Shown here piece after piece: positions 30,183-41,345 of a stretch of 64,000 nt of DNA; position 1 is the first letter of the stretch; each line of letters begins with the position of its first letter. The notes below the pieces were generated by a model that had not been told where the DNA came from, did no database searches, and saw only the letters and a program-made list of their open reading frames with translations. Both the position numbers and the translations under genes were made by a program. This DNA comes from Mesonia mobilis DSM 19841 (lineage in GTDB: Bacteria > Bacteroidota > Bacteroidia > Flavobacteriales > Flavobacteriaceae): assembly GCF_000423405.1 (NCBI RefSeq), contig NZ_AUHX01000005.1, forward strand, positions 124,001-188,000. Reading direction: 5' to 3'.

Positions 30183-31478
30183 TTAAACAGTCGGCAGAAC
30201 AACACCCAATTTATAAATATTCATATAATCGGGTATAAGGTTTTGCTTTAGATCATTCCCAGTTATTTTTTTTAAACCTGTTTTCTGATCAGGGTAAATA
30301 ATTAAACAGTCTATAAGCTTATTATATTCTTTATCATTATAAAGTACATCATAAACTTTTTTAAGACGAGCGTAACCACTCACTTGGCGCATATCTCGAT
30401 TATTTCTGCCATTTAAATAGCTAGGTTTATATTTCGCATCAATCACCATTTTATACGTCTCCGTATTTAGCAAATAATCAAGCTCACTACCCCTATTTTT
30501 AAATTGAAAAAAAACAGCTGTTCCAAAATGTTCTTTGAGCAAACTAAGTGTATAGAGTTCAAAAAGCTTACTCATATCTATCCAAAAAGGTGGGGTTTCT
30601 ACTTTCTCTTTAGTTTGCGATTTAATGCTATAGCCATAGCGCTTGATAATATAGCTAGCTAATGTTAAAGCCTCATCATATTCTTTAAATAAACTTCTAG
30701 ATTTTCCTTGAGGCATCTCTTTAAGGCTTACCTGAGTAGCAACCTGATTAAAAGCAGGATTAATATAATTATACAAATCCTTTAGCCCCTTGGCCTCGGT
30801 AAGTTTATTAAAAGTCGGTAAATAAGCTTTCGATAATTCAAAAGCCTTATTCAGGAGTTTATTTTCAGGGGTGTTCACACCAAATTCCTCAAATTGACAA
30901 TAGGTATGTAAGTTTTTATTTTGAGCTAGGTTATGTTTGATTGTTTTTGATACCAGTACTTTACCTTTTACTCGGCTCTGTAAATTATGTTCAACTTTAT
31001 AATATGACTTTTTAAGGCCTTTTTTTACGATACGTCTTAAAATACCTAAGAATTCGATAATCAAAAAGGGAGTCAAAAAGTCCTGATGCTGTTCTATTTC
31101 AATTTTTGGCTCTTCCCACTTTACCTCAACAAGCTCCTTTATCTCCTGAGTAACCTCAGGGTGCTTCATACAGTGCAGCAGCATCTTCAAGTAATCGGTC
31201 TGCTTGTCGGTATCTTTATCAATCTTTGGAGATATCTGTATTGGTAATTTATTTTGTATAACCCAATCTACACCGATGTAATAATTAGTCTTAATGGCAT
31301 ACTCTCCAAGCTCTTGATCAATACAATTAATTTCATAGCAACGCTCCAACTGCTCTCTGTTTCGGTGTGTTTTTTTAAAAGTTTTAAAAAAGGACTTCCC
31401 TTCTATTGCATTAAGAAATTCGTGAGTAACGGGAGCGATTTCCTTAAAACCTTCGTGTTCTGAAAATTGAAGCATCAT
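30183..31478 (-). CDS. mcrC: McrC, nuclease subunit of the McrBC restriction system
   Basis: A 431-residue McrC: an N-terminal beta-rich region that contacts McrB and a C-terminal PD-(D/E)xK nuclease with ELDYLL followed by MVIDAKYKPSY (about residues 335-360). It cuts DNA when the McrB GTPase ring delivers it to modified cytosine sites. Its ATG overlaps the mcrB stop by 4 bases, the usual coupling. Its stop faces the retron RT gene from 25 bases away. Intact, unlike its retron and RM neighbours. Confidence 0.93.
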   Translation of the reverse strand: MMLQFSEHEGFKEIAPVTHEFLNAIEGKSFFKTFKKTHRNREQLERCYEINCIDQELGEYAIKTNYYIGVDWVIQNKLPIQISPKIDKDTDKQTDYLKMLLHCMKHPEVTQEIKELVEVKWEEPKIEIEQHQDFLTPFLIIEFLGILRRIVKKGLKKSYYKVEHNLQSRVKGKVLVSKTIKHNLAQNKNLHTYCQFEEFGVNTPENKLLNKAFELSKAYLPTFNKLTEAKGLKDLYNYINPAFNQVATQVSLKEMPQGKSRSLFKEYDEALTLASYIIKRYGYSIKSQTKEKVETPPFWIDMSKLFELYTLSLLKEHFGTAVFFQFKNRGSELDYLLNTETYKMVIDAKYKPSYLNGRNNRDMRQVSGYARLKKVYDVLYNDKEYNKLIDCLIIYPDQKTGLKKITGNDLKQNLIPDYMNIYKLGVVLPTV

Positions 31479-33394
31479 ACGACTTTAAGATCTTCAATAT
31501 GTTTCTTCACATCTTCTTGCAGAATACCATCTTTTACGTATTCTAGCAGTATTGGTTTGATTTCATATTCCAAACGCAGCTCTAATTCTTTCCGCTGTTC
31601 ATCTTCAGAACCAGATTTAAGAAGAAAGTAACTATGTCCTAAGTGTATATCCTTGTAATCAAAATCTGCTGTAAGGTATTTGGAGTTTTGTTGCTTACCA
31701 TCTACAGCTTCTACAAAAAGTTCGGATACTTTACTGAATAAATCTTTTGCCTTTGCATTCGAAATAACACCTTCATCGGGTAATACGTCTACAAAAGCAA
31801 AACGTCTGCGGATAGCATAATCAATATGCCCCACACTGCGGTCAGCGGTGTTCATCGTTCCGATGATATATAAATTAGGTGGGATTGTAATTTTAGAATC
31901 TTCATCGATCGAATACATACTCTCTACAGCCTCCCCGCGGTATTCTAAGGCATATATTAACTCCCCCATTACACTTGGTAAATTTGCTCGGTTGATTTCG
32001 TCGATGATGAGAACATAATTTGCTGTTTTATTATTCAACGCACTTTCTGCAAATTTCGCTAGTGATTTATTTTCAGGTTCATATTCGAGAGCTCCATTTT
32101 CATTAGTCTTAATTGTAATACCTCTTACAAAATCTTCATAGGTATAGGAAGGATGAAATTGAATTATTTTCTTATCGCCTTTAGTAACAATTTCATCATT
32201 CTCTAATATTAACTTTCCTTTTAAATCAAAATTTTCAAACAAAAAATACATAAACTCATAATTCGTAATATCGGAATTATATTTATGTTTCAAATCTAAA
32301 AAGAACTGCTGGACTTTTTTATTTTTTTCTATATAGTTAAGATTCTTGTATTCTTGTTTAATTAACCTTAAAACGTTATTTAAACAAGATTCACTATTAA
32401 TAGGGAAATACTTGTCTGGATGATATTGATAAAGTACTTTTAGCACAAAACCTTTACCTATGGGATAGTCGTAAATGTTTTCAAAAACAATATCCTCTAA
32501 CAATTTTGCTACTTTTTTCATAGCCTCTGAATTGTCTTCAATATCACGTATAAAACCATTCTTTTTATATTCTTCATTTTTAGCATCCCAATAAATTTTA
32601 CCTTTAGTAGCTCTACCAGCATACTTTCCAGTGTCTACTAATTTATATTCAATCCAATAGCAAAAAGTATCATTACTTTCAATTCCCAATACATAATCAT
32701 CTAGTTTCAAATTTGATAATTCTTGTTTTTCAAATCTGTTTAAAAACGTCTTATTAAGCCCGTTAACAAAATTACGATGTTCAAGAATATCATCATTAAC
32801 TTTGTAATTCTTAAAGAAAACGTCAATCTTATCTAGTGGATTAAATTTTACGGTATCTTTTGTTAGTGCATCAGCAATTTTCTTTGCTAGATAGGTCTTT
32901 CCGGTACCGGGAGGCCCTTGAAGGATAATTTGTTTTTTGTAATTTAATACAGTTTGGATACTTTCTAACATTAATTTTGATTTTATTGTTGTGTACCAAA
33001 AATTGATAAATTCAGAATTATTTGCACTTTCTAAAGTTGTGGGAAGGTATAAGCTATCATTCCATTTCTGAGCTAATGATTTATATTCTTCTTTATATTT
33101 ATCTCCTTCCATTGAGATTATTTTGATATCTCGCTTAATATCAAACCAGATATCCTTATTAGTGTTTGGCTCACTTGAACCAGTTATTTGAACTAAAGCT
33201 AAAGGACCACCACTTCTGACTAGAACGATATCTCCTATTTTGACGTCATTTTTGAACTTCTGAGGTTGTCCTCTGTCATTATCCCAAGATTCACCCATCC
33301 CTATAATTTGATGGTTCATCAAAATTTCTGTTACCACACTTCGATTTACAGTTTCTTCATCACTTGGGTGAAGCATCATATGCCAATAGTTCAT
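31475..33394 (-). CDS. mcrB: McrB, modified-DNA-recognising AAA+ GTPase
   Basis: A 639-residue McrB. Residues 1-100 form an EVE/PUA-like domain (IGDIVLVRSGGPLALVQITG) expected to read modified bases. The AAA+ motor follows: Walker A GPPGTGKT at 160-167, Walker B VLIIDEIN around 461-467, and MNTADRS at 514-520, the GTPase-specific sensor. Between Walker A and the conserved FHPSYTYEDFVRG (413-425) lies an unusually long insertion of about 215 residues, containing YWIEYKL and YQYHPDKYFPIN. McrC follows with a 4-base overlap. Frame intact. Confidence 0.92.
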   Translation of the reverse strand: MNYWHMMLHPSDEETVNRSVVTEILMNHQIIGMGESWDNDRGQPQKFKNDVKIGDIVLVRSGGPLALVQITGSSEPNTNKDIWFDIKRDIKIISMEGDKYKEEYKSLAQKWNDSLYLPTTLESANNSEFINFWYTTIKSKLMLESIQTVLNYKKQIILQGPPGTGKTYLAKKIADALTKDTVKFNPLDKIDVFFKNYKVNDDILEHRNFVNGLNKTFLNRFEKQELSNLKLDDYVLGIESNDTFCYWIEYKLVDTGKYAGRATKGKIYWDAKNEEYKKNGFIRDIEDNSEAMKKVAKLLEDIVFENIYDYPIGKGFVLKVLYQYHPDKYFPINSESCLNNVLRLIKQEYKNLNYIEKNKKVQQFFLDLKHKYNSDITNYEFMYFLFENFDLKGKLILENDEIVTKGDKKIIQFHPSYTYEDFVRGITIKTNENGALEYEPENKSLAKFAESALNNKTANYVLIIDEINRANLPSVMGELIYALEYRGEAVESMYSIDEDSKITIPPNLYIIGTMNTADRSVGHIDYAIRRRFAFVDVLPDEGVISNAKAKDLFSKVSELFVEAVDGKQQNSKYLTADFDYKDIHLGHSYFLLKSGSEDEQRKELELRLEYEIKPILLEYVKDGILQEDVKKHIEDLKVV

Positions 33395-36336: not shown

Positions 36337-36801
36337 TTAACGTAAATTCTCCAACGAATGGATACATTCGCTTGCCACAATTTTCATTCTTTTATTGAAT
36401 TCAGGAAATGCATAAAAGTAATGAAATTCTTTGCGCATATCATAAATAGCATACTGTTCGGGAAAATACCGGAATGGTATTTTATGTCCGCCTTGGAATT
36501 CACAAAGCAGTATATAGGTTTTTTCATTTCTAATGTCTTTGTTAGGCCCCAAAGGCAATGTTGCAAATGCTAATTTCCATTTTTGTATGTTACCGCAAAC
36601 GACCTGTTTAGCTTTATTTTCTAAGTCTGCGATCATTATTTCATCAGCATCATACCTGGTATTGTCATCATTGTTGATGGTTACCTGTTTTAGTTGTTCC
36701 CAATCATATTTATCTACGCCATAATTTTTTAAATCGGAATCATTTTGCCCTACCACATTTATCGTTATCAAAAATATAAGTATCGTCAGATTAACATTCA
36801 T
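36337..36801 (-). CDS. Small exported protein of unknown function
   Basis: A 154-residue protein with a signal peptide ending VVGQ (about residue 19). The mature domain contains two cysteines (CGNIQK and the C-terminal CIHSLE) and a beta-rich core with CEFQGGHKIPFRYFP. I do not recognise it. Both flanks are AT-rich with no clear terminator. Confidence 0.65.
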   Translation of the reverse strand: MNVNLTILIFLITINVVGQNDSDLKNYGVDKYDWEQLKQVTINNDDNTRYDADEIMIADLENKAKQVVCGNIQKWKLAFATLPLGPNKDIRNEKTYILLCEFQGGHKIPFRYFPEQYAIYDMRKEFHYFYAFPEFNKRMKIVASECIHSLENLR

Positions 36802-37045
36802 TGTGTAGATTTTGTAAACGTTGTATTATCCCACTATTTTGAGGATTAGTCATCTTCAAAAGAAGGTCTATGCCCCTAAATTTAAGTATTATTTAGCATA
36901 TCTGCTTTACGAGTATCTGTAAAACAGATATTTATTAAGTATTCAAATTAAGAACCAGAAAATTAAATGCTTTTTTGAATGTATTTCTAAACCTTTTGCT
37001 AAGCCTAAAAAAGAAATATAAATCTAACTAGCCTACAGCTATGAT

Positions 37046-37261
37046 TTAAAATTTTAAAAGTTGGTAGAAGTCAACTTTCAATGCTTTTGAAATTTCATAC
37101 AAAGAATAGACGGTAGGATTAACTTTGCCATTTTCTAGTTTCTCAATTGCTTGCCGATCTTTACCGCATTCTCGTGCTAAATCAGATTGATTCCAGCCTT
37201 TTTTCAAACGCAATTCGATAATCCGATTACCAACTTTCTTTTTCAATTGATCCTTTGTCAT
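37046..37261 (-). CDS. XRE-family HTH regulator, divergent from the sigma-dCas12f operon
   Basis: A 71-residue HTH_3 protein (start taken at ATG 37261; a 19-codon extension to 37318 is possible but looks unlike the family). The helix-turn-helix is clear: NQSDLARECGKDRQAIEKLENGK. It has no other domain. It is transcribed away from the sigma factor gene and shares its upstream region, where TTTGTCATAT occurs three times, once across its own start codon. I infer an autoregulated repressor of the operon. Confidence 0.88.
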   Translation of the reverse strand: MTKDQLKKKVGNRIIELRLKKGWNQSDLARECGKDRQAIEKLENGKVNPTVYSLYEISKALKVDFYQLLKF

Positions 37262-37342
37262 ATAACAAATGTCAATCAAATACACTACAGTTTTGTCATA
37301 TTTTAAATTGACACTCAAAATAATTTTATATATTTGTCATAT
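37254..37342. promoter_or_regulatory. Three direct copies of TTTGTCATAT, probable operators
   Basis: Exact copies at 37254-37263, 37292-37301 and 37333-37342, with starts spaced by 38 and 41 bases. The first covers the XRE start codon and the third overlaps the -7 box of the divergent operon; the third also extends into an inverted repeat (TGTCATAT, AATA, ATACGACA). These are the natural candidates for XRE binding sites. Confidence 0.6.
37308..37336 (+). promoter_or_regulatory. Promoter of the sigma-dCas12f operon (TTG-N18-TATATTTG)
   Basis: TTG at 37308-37310, 18 bases, then TATATTTG at 37329-37336, matching the Bacteroidota -33/-7 consensus. Transcription would start near 37343, just upstream of the sigma factor gene. 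The TTTG of the -7 box is shared with the third TTTGTCATAT copy, so bound repressor would block it. Confidence 0.65.
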
Positions 37343-37416
37343 AATAATACGACAATTTAACATTTATAATGTTACTTAAGTTTTCTAATCTGTTAACTAT
37401 TAGTCAATTTCTTAAA

Positions 37417-38217
37417 ATGTCACCTATGCAAACTCATTTCTATACCCAGTTACAACTCGGCTCTTCGGAAGCCTTGGCTTATTGGTATGATCGATACCAG
37501 CAGATGCTCTTCTATTTCGGACGGCGCTGGCTGAAGGATCATTTTGTAGTGGAAAACCTAGTACAAGACTGTTTTATCAAGTTGTGGCAGCAGCGGGAGA
37601 CGCTGGAGAGTACGCAACATATTTTCTTTTTTCTACGTTTGGTGATGAAGCGCGGTTGTATTTCGCACTTTACCCAAGCCCAGCAACAGTTTAACCGAAG
37701 CCTTCACCGCTTGGAGCAGTACGAGAATTATAACGATTACTTACTCCAAGACGATCGATCGATGCACGAGGAACACCTCGCGAAGCATGCTGCGCAGCAA
37801 CACGCCTTTGAACAGGTGCAACAGGTCTTGCCGTTATTGAGTGCCGAGCGGCGGCGGCTGATCGAGCTTTGCCTTCGCTATGGCTTTCGTTACCTCCCCA
37901 TTGCACAAGCACTGGGGAAAGGAATGACGGAAACCGCTAACGAAGTGAAACGTAGCATCGCTGAGCTGCAACGCCTGCTACAGCAAGACCCCAATCTTGA
38001 TTTGGAAGCAGCGCCTGTAACAAAAAGCAAGCCTCGCGAACTTACGCCCGCTCAAGCGAAGGTATTTTCCTTGCGTTGCGAAGAAGCCTACTCTTTTGCC
38101 CGTATTGCGAAAGCCCTAGATTGCTCGCCGCAAGAAGCGCAGCAGGAATTTATGAAGGCCTATCTGTTGCTGCAGCACACGCAGCACACGCAGCACACTC
38201 CATCCCAAAAGCACTAA
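37417..38217 (+). CDS. ECF-type sigma factor with an extra C-terminal HTH, partner of dCas12f-like protein
   Basis: Counting from a possible upstream ATG at 37369, residues 30-100 match sigma region 2 (YQQMLFYFGRRWLKDHFVVE.., then LVQDCFIKLWQQRE), residues about 150-203 region 4 (LSAERRRLIELCLR, RYLPIAQALGKGM), and residues 222-268 a second HTH of the same type (LTPAQAKVFSLRCEEAYSFARIAKAL). I prefer ATG 37417 (266 residues) or 37426, because family members begin near QTHFYTQLQ. No anti-sigma gene is adjacent. Instead the Cas12f-like gene starts 1 base after the stop, implying one transcript and probably one complex. Codon use is visibly richer in G/C than the neighbours. The tail has a 9-nt repeat encoding QHT. 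Confidence 0.85.
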   Translation: MSPMQTHFYTQLQLGSSEALAYWYDRYQQMLFYFGRRWLKDHFVVENLVQDCFIKLWQQRETLESTQHIFFFLRLVMKRGCISHFTQAQQQFNRSLHRLEQYENYNDYLLQDDRSMHEEHLAKHAAQQHAFEQVQQVLPLLSAERRRLIELCLRYGFRYLPIAQALGKGMTETANEVKRSIAELQRLLQQDPNLDLEAAPVTKSKPRELTPAQAKVFSLRCEEAYSFARIAKALDCSPQEAQQEFMKAYLLLQHTQHTQHTPSQKH

Positions 38218-38218
38218 G

Positions 38219-39316
38219 ATGAAGAAGAAGACGATGAAACTTACACGAAAAATTCAGCTAGTGGGCGATTTGCCAACGGCAGAAGAGCGCCAGGCAGAGA
38301 TCGGAAAGCTGTACCACTGGCAGACCTGCTGTTACCGAACGGCGAACCTGATGGTCTCGCACCTGTATGCGCAGGAAATGATGGAAGATTTTTTCTATTT
38401 GAGCGAAGGCACCCGGGTGAAGTTATGGGATGAGCGTAAAGATCCTGCCGGGATTTTTATTACCTCGCGGATGAATACAATTTATCAGGTGGCTTCCCGC
38501 CGCTTTAAAGGTGAGATGCCTACCAATATTATCTCTTGCCTGAAAGGAAGCCTGTATAGTGAGTTTACCAAATCTCGAGCGGCCTACCGACTCGGGGAAC
38601 GCTCACTGCCTAATTTTAGGAAGGATATGCCTTTTCCCTTTAGTCGGGAAGAGCTGCGCCAATTTGCCTATGTGCCTGCACAAAAAGCTTTTTGTTTTAG
38701 GCTGTTTGGGATTCCGCTCAAGACCTATTTGGGTAGGGATTTTAGTGATAAACGTCGGCTACTGCAACAGCTAGCCCAAGGGGAACTCCCTCTTTGTACG
38801 TCTAAACTTCAGCTGAAAAACAAAAAGATCTATTGGCTGCCTGTTTTTGAATTGGAAAAAACTAGCCCTCCTCTACAACCGGGAGTGGTGGCTGAGGCTT
38901 CGTTCTCGTTAGCATACCCACTGGTGGTGAAGGTGGGTAAACACCGATTAACGATTGGAACGAAGGAAGAATTTTTATACCGACGCCTAGCGATACAAGC
39001 GGCACGAAAGCGTGCGCAGCAAGGGGTTACCTATGCAAAATCGGGAAAAGGGCGCCGACGGAAACTGAAAGCGGTTGCCAAATTAAAGGAAACGGAACGG
39101 AATTATGTGCGCTCTCGCCTACACCTGTACAGCCGGCGTTTGATTGATTTTTGCCTCAAGCACCAGGCGGGTACTTTGCTACTGCTAGAGCAAGCGGATA
39201 AAATTGGGATCGCTAAGCAGGAGGAGTTTGTGCTTCGGAATTGGAGCTATGATGAATTGCTGACGTTGATCCAATATAAGGCTGCGAAAGCGGGGATTGA
39301 GGTGGTGGTTGGGTAG
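38219..39316 (+). CDS. Nuclease-dead Cas12f/TnpB-like protein (dCas12f)
   Basis: A 365-residue protein with a Cas12f-like layout: an N-terminal helical/REC-WED part (about 8-215, with LYHWQTCCYRTANLM and SRMNTIYQVASRRFKG), then a RuvC-like half. The RuvC-I strand reads AEASFSLAYPLVV: Ser228 stands where GVDLG-type proteins have the catalytic Asp. The bridge region KSGKGRRRKLKAVAKLKETE and RuvC-II (GTLLLLEQ, Glu324 kept) follow, then NWSYDELLTLIQYKA. The chain ends at AGIEVVVG, before the zinc finger and last catalytic Asp. It should bind guide RNA and DNA without cutting. Coupled to the sigma gene, it fits the recently reported dCas12f-sigma RNA-guided transcription systems. A later ATG at 38234 is an alternative start. 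Confidence 0.85.
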   Translation: MKKKTMKLTRKIQLVGDLPTAEERQAEIGKLYHWQTCCYRTANLMVSHLYAQEMMEDFFYLSEGTRVKLWDERKDPAGIFITSRMNTIYQVASRRFKGEMPTNIISCLKGSLYSEFTKSRAAYRLGERSLPNFRKDMPFPFSREELRQFAYVPAQKAFCFRLFGIPLKTYLGRDFSDKRRLLQQLAQGELPLCTSKLQLKNKKIYWLPVFELEKTSPPLQPGVVAEASFSLAYPLVVKVGKHRLTIGTKEEFLYRRLAIQAARKRAQQGVTYAKSGKGRRRKLKAVAKLKETERNYVRSRLHLYSRRLIDFCLKHQAGTLLLLEQADKIGIAKQEEFVLRNWSYDELLTLIQYKAAKAGIEVVVG

Positions 39317-39690
39317 GTTTTAGGTGGTGGGTTTTAGGTGGTAGGAAATGGGGAGTTTTTAGAGGTTAGACTTTTTGGTGGGGAGTTGGGAGTGTTCAGT
39401 AAGCAGTGTTTAGTAGGCAGTGGTGAGGGTGTAGATTGTAGTGTGTATACTGTAGGTTGTAAAGGTTGGGAATGTTTCCTTCGACAGGCTCAGGATGACT
39501 TTTAGAGTATAGAATATAGAGGTTAGAGCATAGACTTTTTTAGGGAGAAGTTGATCCTTCGGCAGGCTCAGGATGACAGTGGTCAGTTTTTAGTTGAGGG
39601 GTTGTAGATTGTAGCATGTATACTGTAGAAGTGAGAAGTGCAGGATGCGGTGCTGAAGCAAGTTGAGCATGACGGTTGGTATTCAGAAGT
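39317..39690. repeat. Right repeat block, first part
   Basis: Directly after the dCas12f stop: G-rich degenerate heptamers (TTAGGTGGT, TTGTAGA, CAGTAGG words) and hairpin elements of the CCTTCG..GCTCAGGATGAC type near 39478 and 39552, then GGTGCTGAAGCAAGTTGAGCATGAC-like at about 39650. No gene seen. If the guide RNA were encoded next to dCas12f it would have to lie in or beyond this low-complexity DNA. Confidence 0.75.
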
Positions 39691-39699
39691 TGAATTTTG

Positions 39700-39877
39700 A
39701 ATAACATCCGGCCTATCGAAGATGAGTCGTTAAATTTGAAGTGAAAATACCGTAAAATTTCAGGCTGTTTGAGCGATAGCGAGTTCCTGAAATTTAGGTG
39801 TCGAACGATAAATTTAGAGGAAGCTTCGTAAGCCTAGACTTTTGTTTCTTTTGGGCGATGCAAAAGAAAAGAACATG
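39700..39877. repeat. Structured intergenic element, possibly a dispersed repeat
   Basis: Non-simple sequence between the low-complexity blocks. It contains a 10-bp inverted repeat AAATTTCAGG / CCTGAAATTT around a 21-base loop (about 39756-39797), a partial repeat of TCG(T/A)TAAATTT on both sides, and a hairpin TTTCTTTTG / CAAAAGAAA near 39846-39872. I recall similar sequence as a dispersed element in other Flavobacteriaceae but cannot confirm it here. No coding frame. Confidence 0.55.
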
Positions 39878-39883
39878 AATTGA

Positions 39884-40180
39884 AGTTGAAATTGAAGTTG
39901 AAGTCGAAATTGAAACTGAAACTGAGAGATTCCTCCTTGCGTCGGAATGACAGCTTGTAGTGGGGAGATTTTAGAGGTGAGTGGTGAGGTTGTAGAGTAT
40001 AAATTGTAGATTGTAGACTGTAGAAGTTGGGAGATGATCCTTCGGCAGGCTCAGGAATTGGCGGTGTTCAGTGCTCAGTAGGCAGTTTATTATAGTAGGA
40101 TGAGATGCTGAAGCGAGTTCAGCTTGACTGCCCTTCGACAAGCTCAGGGTGAAATTTGGGATTTGGAAGTTTATATAAAA
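39884..40180. repeat. Right copy of the island-flanking repeat
   Basis: Degenerate GAAGTT/GAAATT hexamers (39884-39925), GAGATTCC..GGAATGACAG (about 39926-39954) and the following TTGTAG heptamers match 19636-19806 closely and in the same orientation, up to the hairpin near 40037. The following words TTGGCGGTGTTCAGTG and TCAGTAGGCAG match 19519-19548. A GAGATGCTGAA..TTCAGCTTGAC hairpin is at 40102-40130. Confidence 0.8.
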
Positions 40181-40270
40181 AACGAGGGTGCTTGCACACC
40201 CGTAAGGTGAGGTCTTTGTTGCACTCACTAAGTGAGCTTTGCTCATCTGCAACGCGCGGGTACACTTATG
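40181..40270 (+). ncRNA. Candidate structured RNA downstream of dCas12f
   Basis: A compact fold can be drawn on the plus strand: hairpin GGGTG/CACCC (40186-40201); outer stem CGTAAG-G-TG (40201-40209) with CACTTATG (40263-40270), one bulge and one G-U; inner stem GTTGCA/TGCAAC (40218-40253); and hairpin TGAGC/GCTCA (40233-40245). It is GC-richer than its surroundings and has no coding frame. It could be a guide-RNA scaffold or an unrelated dispersed element; the strand is not certain. Confidence 0.35.
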
Positions 40271-40289
40271 AGAGGTATTTGAGGATGCG

Positions 40290-40640
40290 GGTTTGCCCTT
40301 CGACAAGCTCAGGGTGACAATTTAGAGAATAGAAGTTAGAGGTTAGAGCATAGACTTTTTTAGGGGGAAGTTGGGAGTTGGGAGTTTTTAGAGGTGAGTG
40401 GTGAGGTTGTAGTGTTCAGTAGGCATTGTTCTGTAAGGAGTGTTCGGTAGGCAATTTTCAGTTGAGGGTTTATAGATTGTAGCATGTATACTGTAGAAGC
40501 GGGAAGTGCAGGATGAGATGCTGAATCAAGTTCAGCATGACGGTAAGGGTTATGCCCTTCGGCGGGCTCAGGATGACAATTTAGAGCATAGAATATAGAG
40601 ACTAGAACCTAGACTTTTTGACATCCACCCCGCCTTATCG
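40290..40640. repeat. Right repeat block, last part
   Basis: More degenerate heptamers (TTGTAG, CAGTAGG, TTAGAGG words) with hairpin elements near 40297 and 40555 (CCTTCG..GCTCAGG type) and at 40512-40543 (GAGATGCTGAA, TCAAG, TTCAGCATGAC). It ends shortly before acpH. No gene seen. Confidence 0.8.
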
Positions 40641-40751
40641 GGCCCCCTCCTTCGAAAGGATGGGAGCTTTTTGAGGAAGTTGAAGTCGAATTCTAAACTT
40701 TTACTTCTCCCCTTCTTGTACAAACTTATTATTCAACGTACTTTAGAGGTT

Positions 40752-41345
40752 ATGAATTACCTTGCCCATATTTACCTCTCGGGGGATGATCTCCCTTTAT
40801 TAAAAATTGGAAATTTTGCTGCCGATTCGATTAAAGGGAAAGCTTATAAAAAATTTCCGCAGACCCTACAGCAGGGAATTTTACTGCATCGTGAGATCGA
40901 TACTTTTACCGATACACACCCGATTGTTTTTGAAAGTAAACATCGTCTCTTCAAAAAATACCGGCATTATTCTTCGGTGATCGTCGATATGTTTTACGAT
41001 CATTTTTTAGCTAAAAACTGGCAAGACTACCACTCTACCCAACTTCCCGTTTATGTGGAAGATTTTTATTTACTGCTGAAGTATAATTTTGAACTTCTCC
41101 CGAAACGGGTTCAGAATTTTTATCCGTATATGGTGAGTGACAATTGGTTATTAAGTTATGCCGATCTAGATGGACTTCATAAAATTCTTAGCCAAATGAG
41201 CAGTCGTGTTCGTGGCAAAGTAAAGTTACAAGATGCGATTGTAGAATTAGAGCAGTATTATGAAGATTTTGAACAGGAGTTCGTTACTTTTTTTAAAGAA
41301 CTTGAAGCTTTTGCTGCACAGAAGAAAAAAGAGCTGCTAATTTAA
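40752..41345 (+). CDS. acpH: Acyl-carrier-protein phosphodiesterase (AcpH / DUF479)
   Basis: Removes phosphopantetheine from acyl carrier protein. The start is set at ATG 40752 because the protein family begins MNYLAHIYLSG; an upstream in-frame ATG at 40671 would translate repeat DNA. The 197-residue product has the conserved GNFAADSIKG, LHREIDTFTDTHP and VDMFYDHFLA, which carry the HD-like metal ligands. It marks the return to core genes after the accessory region. Confidence 0.9.
   Translation: MNYLAHIYLSGDDLPLLKIGNFAADSIKGKAYKKFPQTLQQGILLHREIDTFTDTHPIVFESKHRLFKKYRHYSSVIVDMFYDHFLAKNWQDYHSTQLPVYVEDFYLLLKYNFELLPKRVQNFYPYMVSDNWLLSYADLDGLHKILSQMSSRVRGKVKLQDAIVELEQYYEDFEQEFVTFFKELEAFAAQKKKELLI

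What the first reader, a model, noticed from the sequence alone, without database searches (positions are those of the whole stretch)
37417..39316. Sigma factor plus nuclease-dead Cas12f-like protein in one operon: likely RNA-guided transcription system
Seen: an ECF-type sigma gene and a 365-residue Cas12f/TnpB-like gene are separated by one base. The latter has Ser228 in place of the RuvC-I Asp (AEASFSLAYP against GVDLG-type), keeps Glu324, and ends before the zinc finger and third catalytic residue. Known: TnpB/Cas12f bind guide RNA and DNA through these folds; nuclease-dead Cas12f linked to sigma factors has recently been reported in Bacteroidota to recruit RNA polymerase to guide-matched sites without a promoter motif (my recollection). 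Inference: this pair turns on a target operon chosen by a guide RNA rather than by a promoter sequence.
Basis: partly seen in the sequence, partly recalled or inferred. Interest (0 to 1): 0.95.

Follow-up and report, generated by a model that had tools for sequence, protein, structure and literature searches.

The report
RNA-guided sigma factor pair, known family
This is a genuine pair of genes, a sigma factor and a dead Cas12f that should work with a guide RNA, of a kind whose relative has already been solved bound to RNA polymerase; the new part is its guide RNA and a conserved RNA element that many guides of the family resemble.

Summary
In detail: an ECF-type sigma gene (37417-38217) and a 365-codon Cas12f-like gene (38219-39316) lie one base apart, and Ser228 stands where nucleases have the RuvC-I Asp. 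So this is a new member of a recently described kind. One detail fails: Glu324 is not retained catalysis, because 20 of 27 relatives have Asn there. New here: the guide-RNA scaffold (40184-40253) with a putative 16-nt guide; a second pair in the same genome; the scaffold in 37 of 37 genomes with the protein, against 1 of 14 without. Many guides of the family resemble one strand of a conserved structured RNA upstream of SusC/SusD operons and often of the pair itself (best match there for 76 of 165 guide-element pairs, 4-12 for shuffled guides). I infer that this strand is a docking site, with initiation near a built-in terminator. The window's own guide has 3 mismatches in 16 to the best such site, so its target is unproven.

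The parts
37417..38217 (+). ECF-type sigma factor gene (266 aa from 37417; the longest ORF begins at 37369); best region-4 match at residues 208-248, one of two stretches
   Evidence: Pfam r2 and r4_2; matches RpoE of PDB 9n9q, E 2.7e-66
38219..39316 (+). nuclease-dead Cas12f (dCas12f) gene, 365 aa
   Evidence: end-to-end match to PDB 9n9c_A, E 2e-153; model matches 9n9m and 9n9c
38900..38902 (+). codon 228, Ser in place of the RuvC-I Asp
   Evidence: Ser in 27 of 27
39188..39190 (+). codon 324, Glu; not conserved in the family
40184..40253 (+). guide-RNA scaffold, beginning 868 bases past the last base of the dCas12f stop codon
   Evidence: R2 covariance model 73.3 bits, E 5.3e-20 (the window copy was among the 20 sequences the model was built from); first 30 bases found once in the window, 0 expected in shuffles
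40254..40269 (+). putative 16-nt guide after the scaffold's 3' CAAC
   Evidence: position; length inferred from where guide/site identity falls in relatives
37046..37318 (-). divergent HTH_3 regulator; an HTH_3 gene also flanks the structured element beside SusC/SusD in this genome
   Evidence: Pfam HTH_3 7.1e-15 here and 2.8e-10 there
39317..40183 (+). repeat-rich spacer between dCas12f and its guide RNA; irregular repeats, no regular CRISPR-like array seen

Best explanation
The two genes encode a dCas12f-sigma pair that, with the guide RNA made from about 40184 onward, starts transcription at guide-matched DNA. Shown here by sequence: membership in the family of the solved dCas12f/sigma/RNA polymerase complex; loss of the RuvC-I Asp and of the C-terminal part; adjacency of sigma and dCas12f; a guide scaffold in every genome examined that has the protein; two pairs and three guide scaffolds in this genome. 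Inferred: the 16 nt after CAAC are the guide; a common site in the family is one strand ('B', consensus GCGTGGGCTCTCTTAT) of a structured leader RNA upstream of SusC/SusD operons and often of the pair itself, with G just 5' of the match; initiation falls about 46 bp past the site (figure recalled, not tested), at the 3' arm of that leader's terminator, so that new transcripts escape it. In this genome the best candidate targets are the leader of a SusC/SusD operon on contig C1 and the leader of the second pair on C3.
For: PDB identity of the family. Sigma adjacent in 53 of 58 loci. Scaffold in 37 of 37 dCas12f genomes and 1 of 14 without; hairpins 96.8% paired with 51 double-change cells. Element: 98.5% of cells paired, 391 double-change cells against 20-65 when slid; terminator pairing 95.9%. 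Best 17-nt match of a guide over a cognate element plus 1.6 kb, both strands, falls at B in 76 of 165 guide-element pairs (39 of 62 guides) against 4, 6, 7 and 12 of 165 for four sets of shuffled guides. G just before B in 74 of 82 elements; guide/B identity 0.64-1.0 over positions 1-16 and 0.08-0.44 after, 25 pairs. Own SusC/SusD operon after an element. Both pairs under selection: pN 0.14 (dCas12f) and 0.30 (sigma) against saturated pS.
Against: No RNA, binding or transcription data. The window guide differs from the C1 B site at 3 of 16 positions, and 12 places besides itself lie within 3 mismatches in this genome (3 for the backward control), the closest, with 2, inside rpoB. The 20-nt window guide has no match within 3 mismatches except itself. 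The window pair has no element upstream. The 25 pairs behind the identity profile were chosen by similarity to the 16-nt consensus, so the high values inside 16 are partly built in, and the G before B is also a paired base of the element. Guides matched their own genome's B only slightly better than other genomes' (1.68 against 1.92 mismatches; 277 of 5000 permutations as good). Only 26 of 64 guides are B-like by that cut. The element also occurs in 9 of 29 genomes without dCas12f. The structure model is only fair (mean pLDDT 69, residues 319-365 under 50).
Confidence: 0.88

Rival explanations
1. The guide acts on RNA rather than DNA: the B-like guide pairs with the A or C strand of the leader RNA and shifts it between the rod (A:B) and the terminator (B:C).
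For: B is complementary to both A and C, and both pairings covary; the leader is a structured RNA, not a bare 16-bp site.
Against: The solved relative is titled a gRNA-DNA R-loop complex; G precedes B in 74 of 82 elements, which suits a DNA target motif but is also a paired base; the A. taeanensis guide matches best outside the element, in the SusC leader.
Confidence: 0.12
2. Guides and B strands are alike only through common origin: a gRNA captured a piece of the leader, and the real targets lie elsewhere.
For: Weak excess of cognate over permuted matches; second-pair guides share further letters with the leader beyond 16 nt (by eye); 38 of 64 guides are not B-like.
Against: The likeness stops at about 16 nt, as for a guide and its site, and is kept in many genera.
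Confidence: 0.3
3. The window copy is a decaying duplicate of the C3 pair that no longer regulates anything.
For: No leader element upstream; guide RNA displaced by repeats; poor guide match.
Against: Both frames intact; nonsynonymous change far below saturated synonymous change; scaffold intact; displacement is common in the genus (11-870 nt from the last sense codon in 11 loci, 7 of them over 110 nt).
Confidence: 0.1
4. Ordinary ECF sigma factor beside an unrelated transposon-derived TnpB remnant.
For: NCBIfam best hit is guided_TnpB, below cut-off.
Against:: fixed pairing, fixed length, Ser228 in 27 of 27, solved complex of a relative.
Confidence: 0.01

Closest known systems
dCas12f-sigma (RpoE)-RNA polymerase system in PDB 9n9c, 9n9m, 9n9o, 9n9q (9n9c and 9n9m released 2025-12-24); sequence identical to the Allomuricauda (Flagellimonas) taeanensis protein
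   Same: 365-residue dCas12f, 62% identical over the whole length; Ser at the RuvC-I position; sigma gene just upstream; same gRNA scaffold
   Different: Two pairs in this genome; guide RNA about 870 bases after the gene instead of 14; different guide; no leader element before the window pair
TldR, TnpB-derived RNA-guided transcription factors (Wiegand et al. 2024; seen only as a citation)
   Same: Nuclease-dead, guide-dependent regulators of the same superfamily (recalled)
   Different: TldRs repress by blocking promoters (recalled); here a dedicated sigma factor is paired
Active Cas12f nucleases (8hr5, 9nzo, 9nzr, 7c7l)
   Same: Shared fold
   Different: RuvC-I Asp present there, Ser here; they extend beyond the point where this protein ends

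Membership tests
dCas12f-sigma RNA-guided transcription family | Cas12f-fold protein homologous over its full length to the solved dCas12f | tested here: met
dCas12f-sigma RNA-guided transcription family | RuvC-I catalytic Asp lost | tested here: met
   Ser228; Ser in 27 of 27
dCas12f-sigma RNA-guided transcription family | cognate ECF-type sigma gene adjacent | tested here: met
   one base apart; matches RpoE of 9n9q
dCas12f-sigma RNA-guided transcription family | own guide-RNA scaffold near the gene | tested here: met
   40184-40253, E 5.3e-20; 37 of 37 against 1 of 14
dCas12f-sigma RNA-guided transcription family | guide-matched site with 5'-G upstream of a regulated operon (motif recalled) | tested here: inconclusive
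   family: G before B in 74 of 82, best guide match at B in 76 of 165 pairs; window guide: 3 mismatches in 16
dCas12f-sigma RNA-guided transcription family | protein binds guide RNA, sigma factor and RNA polymerase | not testable with these tools
   seen only for the solved relative, from entry titles and chain names
dCas12f-sigma RNA-guided transcription family | transcription starts downstream of the guide site without a promoter motif (recalled) | not testable with these tools
   needs transcript-end mapping
CRISPR-Cas12f (type V-F) nuclease | intact RuvC catalytic residues | tested here: not met
   Ser228, position 324 variable, C-terminal part absent
CRISPR-Cas12f (type V-F) nuclease | CRISPR array beside the gene | tested here: not met
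   only irregular repeats in 36800-41000 (direct repeats of 20 nt or more); no wider search
TldR repressors | no dedicated sigma partner; acts by blocking a promoter (recalled) | tested here: not met
   sigma gene adjacent here and in 53 of 58 loci

The most novel reading that the evidence does not exclude
Across Flavobacteriales, many dCas12f-sigma systems carry a near-fixed 16-nt guide that reads the B strand of a widespread structured leader RNA for which I found no Rfam family. That leader has its own promoter-like box (by eye) and a terminator that uses the same B strand. Guided initiation falls at the terminator's 3' arm, so the guide turns SusC/SusD operons, and in many species the pair itself, from terminated to transcribed. 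The guide would be less a reprogrammable address than a key to one RNA-encoded lock.
Probability: 0.33. Interest if true: 0.75.

Novelty: new member of a known kind. Interest (0 to 1): 0.5.

Why it matters
The pair widens a very young family. The genus seems to be Mesonia (nearest named loci), with two pairs in this genome. More useful, the comparison yields guides for 36 genomes and concrete candidate target sites, which makes the question of what these systems regulate in nature directly testable: SusC/SusD nutrient-uptake operons and, in many species, the system itself. It also brings out a strongly covarying structured RNA that gave no Rfam match in the six loci scanned that hold it.

Tried and rejected
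Rejected: Glu324 as a retained catalytic residue. Rejected: a close genomic match of the full 20-nt window guide, or of 23 nt of the second-pair guides; only the guide genes themselves were found within 3 mismatches. Rejected: the 2-mismatch site on contig C11, because it lies inside a gene that reads as rpoB. Not pursued: an inverted B-like site in the SusC leader of 5 congeneric genomes, on the strand facing away from susC. Rejected: the element as an Rfam family; no match over the element at E up to 1 in the six loci scanned that hold it; one search covered only the window, which has no element. Rejected: Rfp18 of Flavobacterium psychrophilum as the same RNA, because the passages describe an sRNA pairing with protease mRNAs through a third stem-loop (PMC9723704, passages only); this is a judgement from text, not a sequence comparison.

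Led nowhere: the window guide RNA folded alone is no more stable than shuffles (z -0.85). The A. taeanensis guide search gave 8 hits besides the guide itself and 12 for the backward control; one of the 8 lies in a SusC leader and is argued from its place, not its score, and another (L075) lies inside a gene. Literature: the paper behind PDB 9n9c was not found in the held library. What I say of the 5'-G motif and the 46-bp start distance is recalled from an RNA-guided transcription preprint of the Sternberg group, and I cannot tell whether that work already describes the leader element or the SusC targets. Papers seen: PMC12908284, PMC13186708 and PMC9723704 as passages; all others as listings.

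Limits of counts: the 58 loci leave out L001 and L002 (shorter copies of L004 and L003) and include some loci twice (L006 = L015, L012 = L049). The scaffold and element models were built from members of these same loci. Guides: 79 scaffold hits in held loci, 73 gave a guide, 64 distinct, 36 genomes; 6 hits whose 3' end did not fit a CAAC-like motif were dropped; two guides in genomes without a held element leave 62. Elements: 82 in 34 genomes, not all copies. Downstream-gene classes came from a rough pattern (sigma 15, SusC-like 32, other 24, none 11); by eye at least 4 'other' are sigma and 4 are SusC-like. 24 of 82 elements gave no terminator distance, which looked only 35-75 nt past B. Of the HTH-like genes beside elements, Pfam was run on one (plus the window's); the rest were read by eye. 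Part of the output was cut.

Full report
What is there. A sigma gene (37417-38217, +) and a 365-codon gene (38219-39316, +) are one base apart. The sigma protein has Pfam region 2 and two region-4 stretches, the best at residues 208-248; at 266 residues it is longer than a usual ECF factor (about 190, recalled). The second protein has no Pfam hit and only sub-threshold NCBIfam hits to TnpB and Cas12f2. Against the PDB it aligns over residues 1-365 with 'Nuclease-deactivated Cas12f' (9n9c, 9n9m, 9n9o, 9n9q; E 2e-153), far ahead of active Cas12f (E 1e-33 and weaker). The PDB sequence aligns without a difference to the protein of locus L018, Allomuricauda taeanensis. The sigma matches chain 'RpoE' of 9n9q (E 2.7e-66), and 9n9q also holds an RNA polymerase beta close to this genome's RpoB. 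I saw chain names and two entry titles, not a paper.

Dead nuclease. Residue 228 is Ser where Cas12f nucleases have the Asp of GVDLG, and it is Ser in 27 of 27 proteins aligned. Residue 324 is Glu only here; 20 of 27 have Asn. Read to the stop codon, 25 of 27 are 364-365 codons, the other two having been measured from a later start. An AlphaFold2 model (mean pLDDT 69, residues 319-365 under 50) has 9n9m and 9n9c as best structural matches, then active Cas12f.

Distribution. In the 60 genomes, 10 have the protein at E up to 1e-20 (own genome included), among them 8 of 15 congeners. 46 loci came from named genomes; their titles are of Bacteroidota as far as I know the names. The nearest named relatives are Mesonia, so the window is probably a Mesonia; its name was not given. 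Sigma lies just upstream in 53 of 58 loci; of the others, four begin at a contig end and one (L013) is a remnant with stops. The own genome has a second pair on contig C3 (77% identical dCas12f). Between the two copies nonsynonymous difference is 0.14 (dCas12f) and 0.30 (sigma) against saturated synonymous difference, so both are under purifying selection.

Guide RNA. A scaffold of about 70 nt (hairpin GGGTG..CACCC, hairpin GGTGAGG..CACTCACT, a third small hairpin, then ACAAC) follows the gene in 57 of 58 loci; the exception has 17 bases left. In the window it is at 40184-40253. Covariance model R2 found it in 37 of 37 genomes with the protein and 1 of 14 without (G036, 46 bits). Its two modelled hairpins are 96.8% paired with 51 double-change cells. 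The own genome has three scaffolds, one here and two beside the C3 pair. Counted from the last sense codon, the first scaffold starts 14-147 nt (median 17) downstream in 44 other loci but 11-870 nt in 11 loci of the genus, where repeats can intervene.

Guides and a structured element. Many guides begin GCGTGGGCTCTCTTAT. Nearly the same letters form one strand (B) of an element first seen upstream of sigma in 21 of 58 loci (L006 and L015 are one locus; in L040 it lies 2 kb off). The element is a rod-like RNA: on 88 copies (85 distinct) 98.5% of pair cells are standard, with 391 double-change cells against 20-65 for slid controls. B can also pair with a downstream strand (C) followed by T-rich sequence, like a terminator (95.9% paired, 31 double-change cells against 0-10 for slid controls). 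Model R1 found it in 43 of 66 genomes: 34 of 37 with dCas12f and 9 of 29 without. So it is not exclusive to dCas12f. Of 82 copies in dCas12f genomes, a rough pattern put a sigma gene after 15 and a SusC-like gene after 32; by eye at least 4 more of each. In the own genome one copy precedes the C3 pair and one precedes a SusC/SusD operon on C1 (Pfam Plug and SusD_RagB), with an HTH_3 gene on the other side. The window pair also has a divergent HTH_3 gene but no element.

Is B the target? For: over each cognate element plus 1.6 kb, both strands, the best 17-nt match of a guide falls at B in 76 of 165 guide-element pairs (39 of 62 guides), against 4, 6, 7 and 12 of 165 for four sets of shuffled guides. 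Over 25 cognate guide/B pairs, identity is 0.64-1.0 at positions 1-16 and 0.08-0.44 from 17 on; these pairs were picked by likeness to the 16-nt consensus, so the first part is partly built in, the fall is not. G precedes B in 74 of 82 copies, though that base is also paired in the element. One species matches 18 of 18 (L041). Against: only 26 of 64 guides are B-like by that cut; cognate matches beat permuted ones only weakly (1.68 against 1.92 mismatches in 22 genomes, 277 of 5000 permutations as good), so the data show that guides and B are alike, not that each guide is tuned to its own genome. The A. taeanensis guide matches instead a site 355 bases past the start of an element, in the SusC leader, 14 of 17 with a 5'-G; that search gave 8 hits besides the guide and 12 for the backward control, so place rather than score is the argument. 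The window guide matches the C1 B site at 13 of 16; 13 places in the own genome, itself included, lie within 3 mismatches, against 3 for the backward control. B end to terminator end is 49-55 nt in the 58 of 82 copies measured. With a start about 46 bp past the site (recalled), initiation would fall on the terminator's 3' arm. That is inference.

Verdict. The added value is the guide RNA, the second pair, and the element with its guide-like strand. Whether the element is in print I cannot say: my searches of the open library did not turn up the primary paper or the element.

Noticed in passing
G000 C1:468604-468740 (L116, L089) and the other copies in alignment A6: Covarying structured RNA with no Rfam match over it in six loci scanned, up to 8 copies per genome, often between a divergent small HTH-like gene (by eye) and a SusC operon; also in 9 of 29 genomes without dCas12f.
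   Followed up: partly
window 37254-37354: TTTGTCATAT repeats between the HTH gene and the sigma gene, possible operators for the HTH protein.
   Followed up: no
window 30183-33394 (-): McrBC-type restriction pair (Pfam McrBC and AAA_5) a few kilobases from the dCas12f pair.
   Followed up: no
L089 7259-12931: On the other side of the C1 element lie a weak DndB match (below the Pfam cut-off) and genes that read, by eye, as defence-like; the element may border a variable defence region.
   Followed up: no
window 39317-40670: Repeat-rich non-coding stretch (CCTTCGACAAGCTCAGG and TTAGAGGTTAGAG types) that separates gene and guide RNA; similar repeats, by eye, in congeners.
   Followed up: partly
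G000 C1:468301-468316 (+): Inverted B-like motif GACC[CT]GGGCG[CT]AGGTACT in the SusC leader of five genomes of the genus; in the own genome it shares the first four letters with the window guide.
   Followed up: partly
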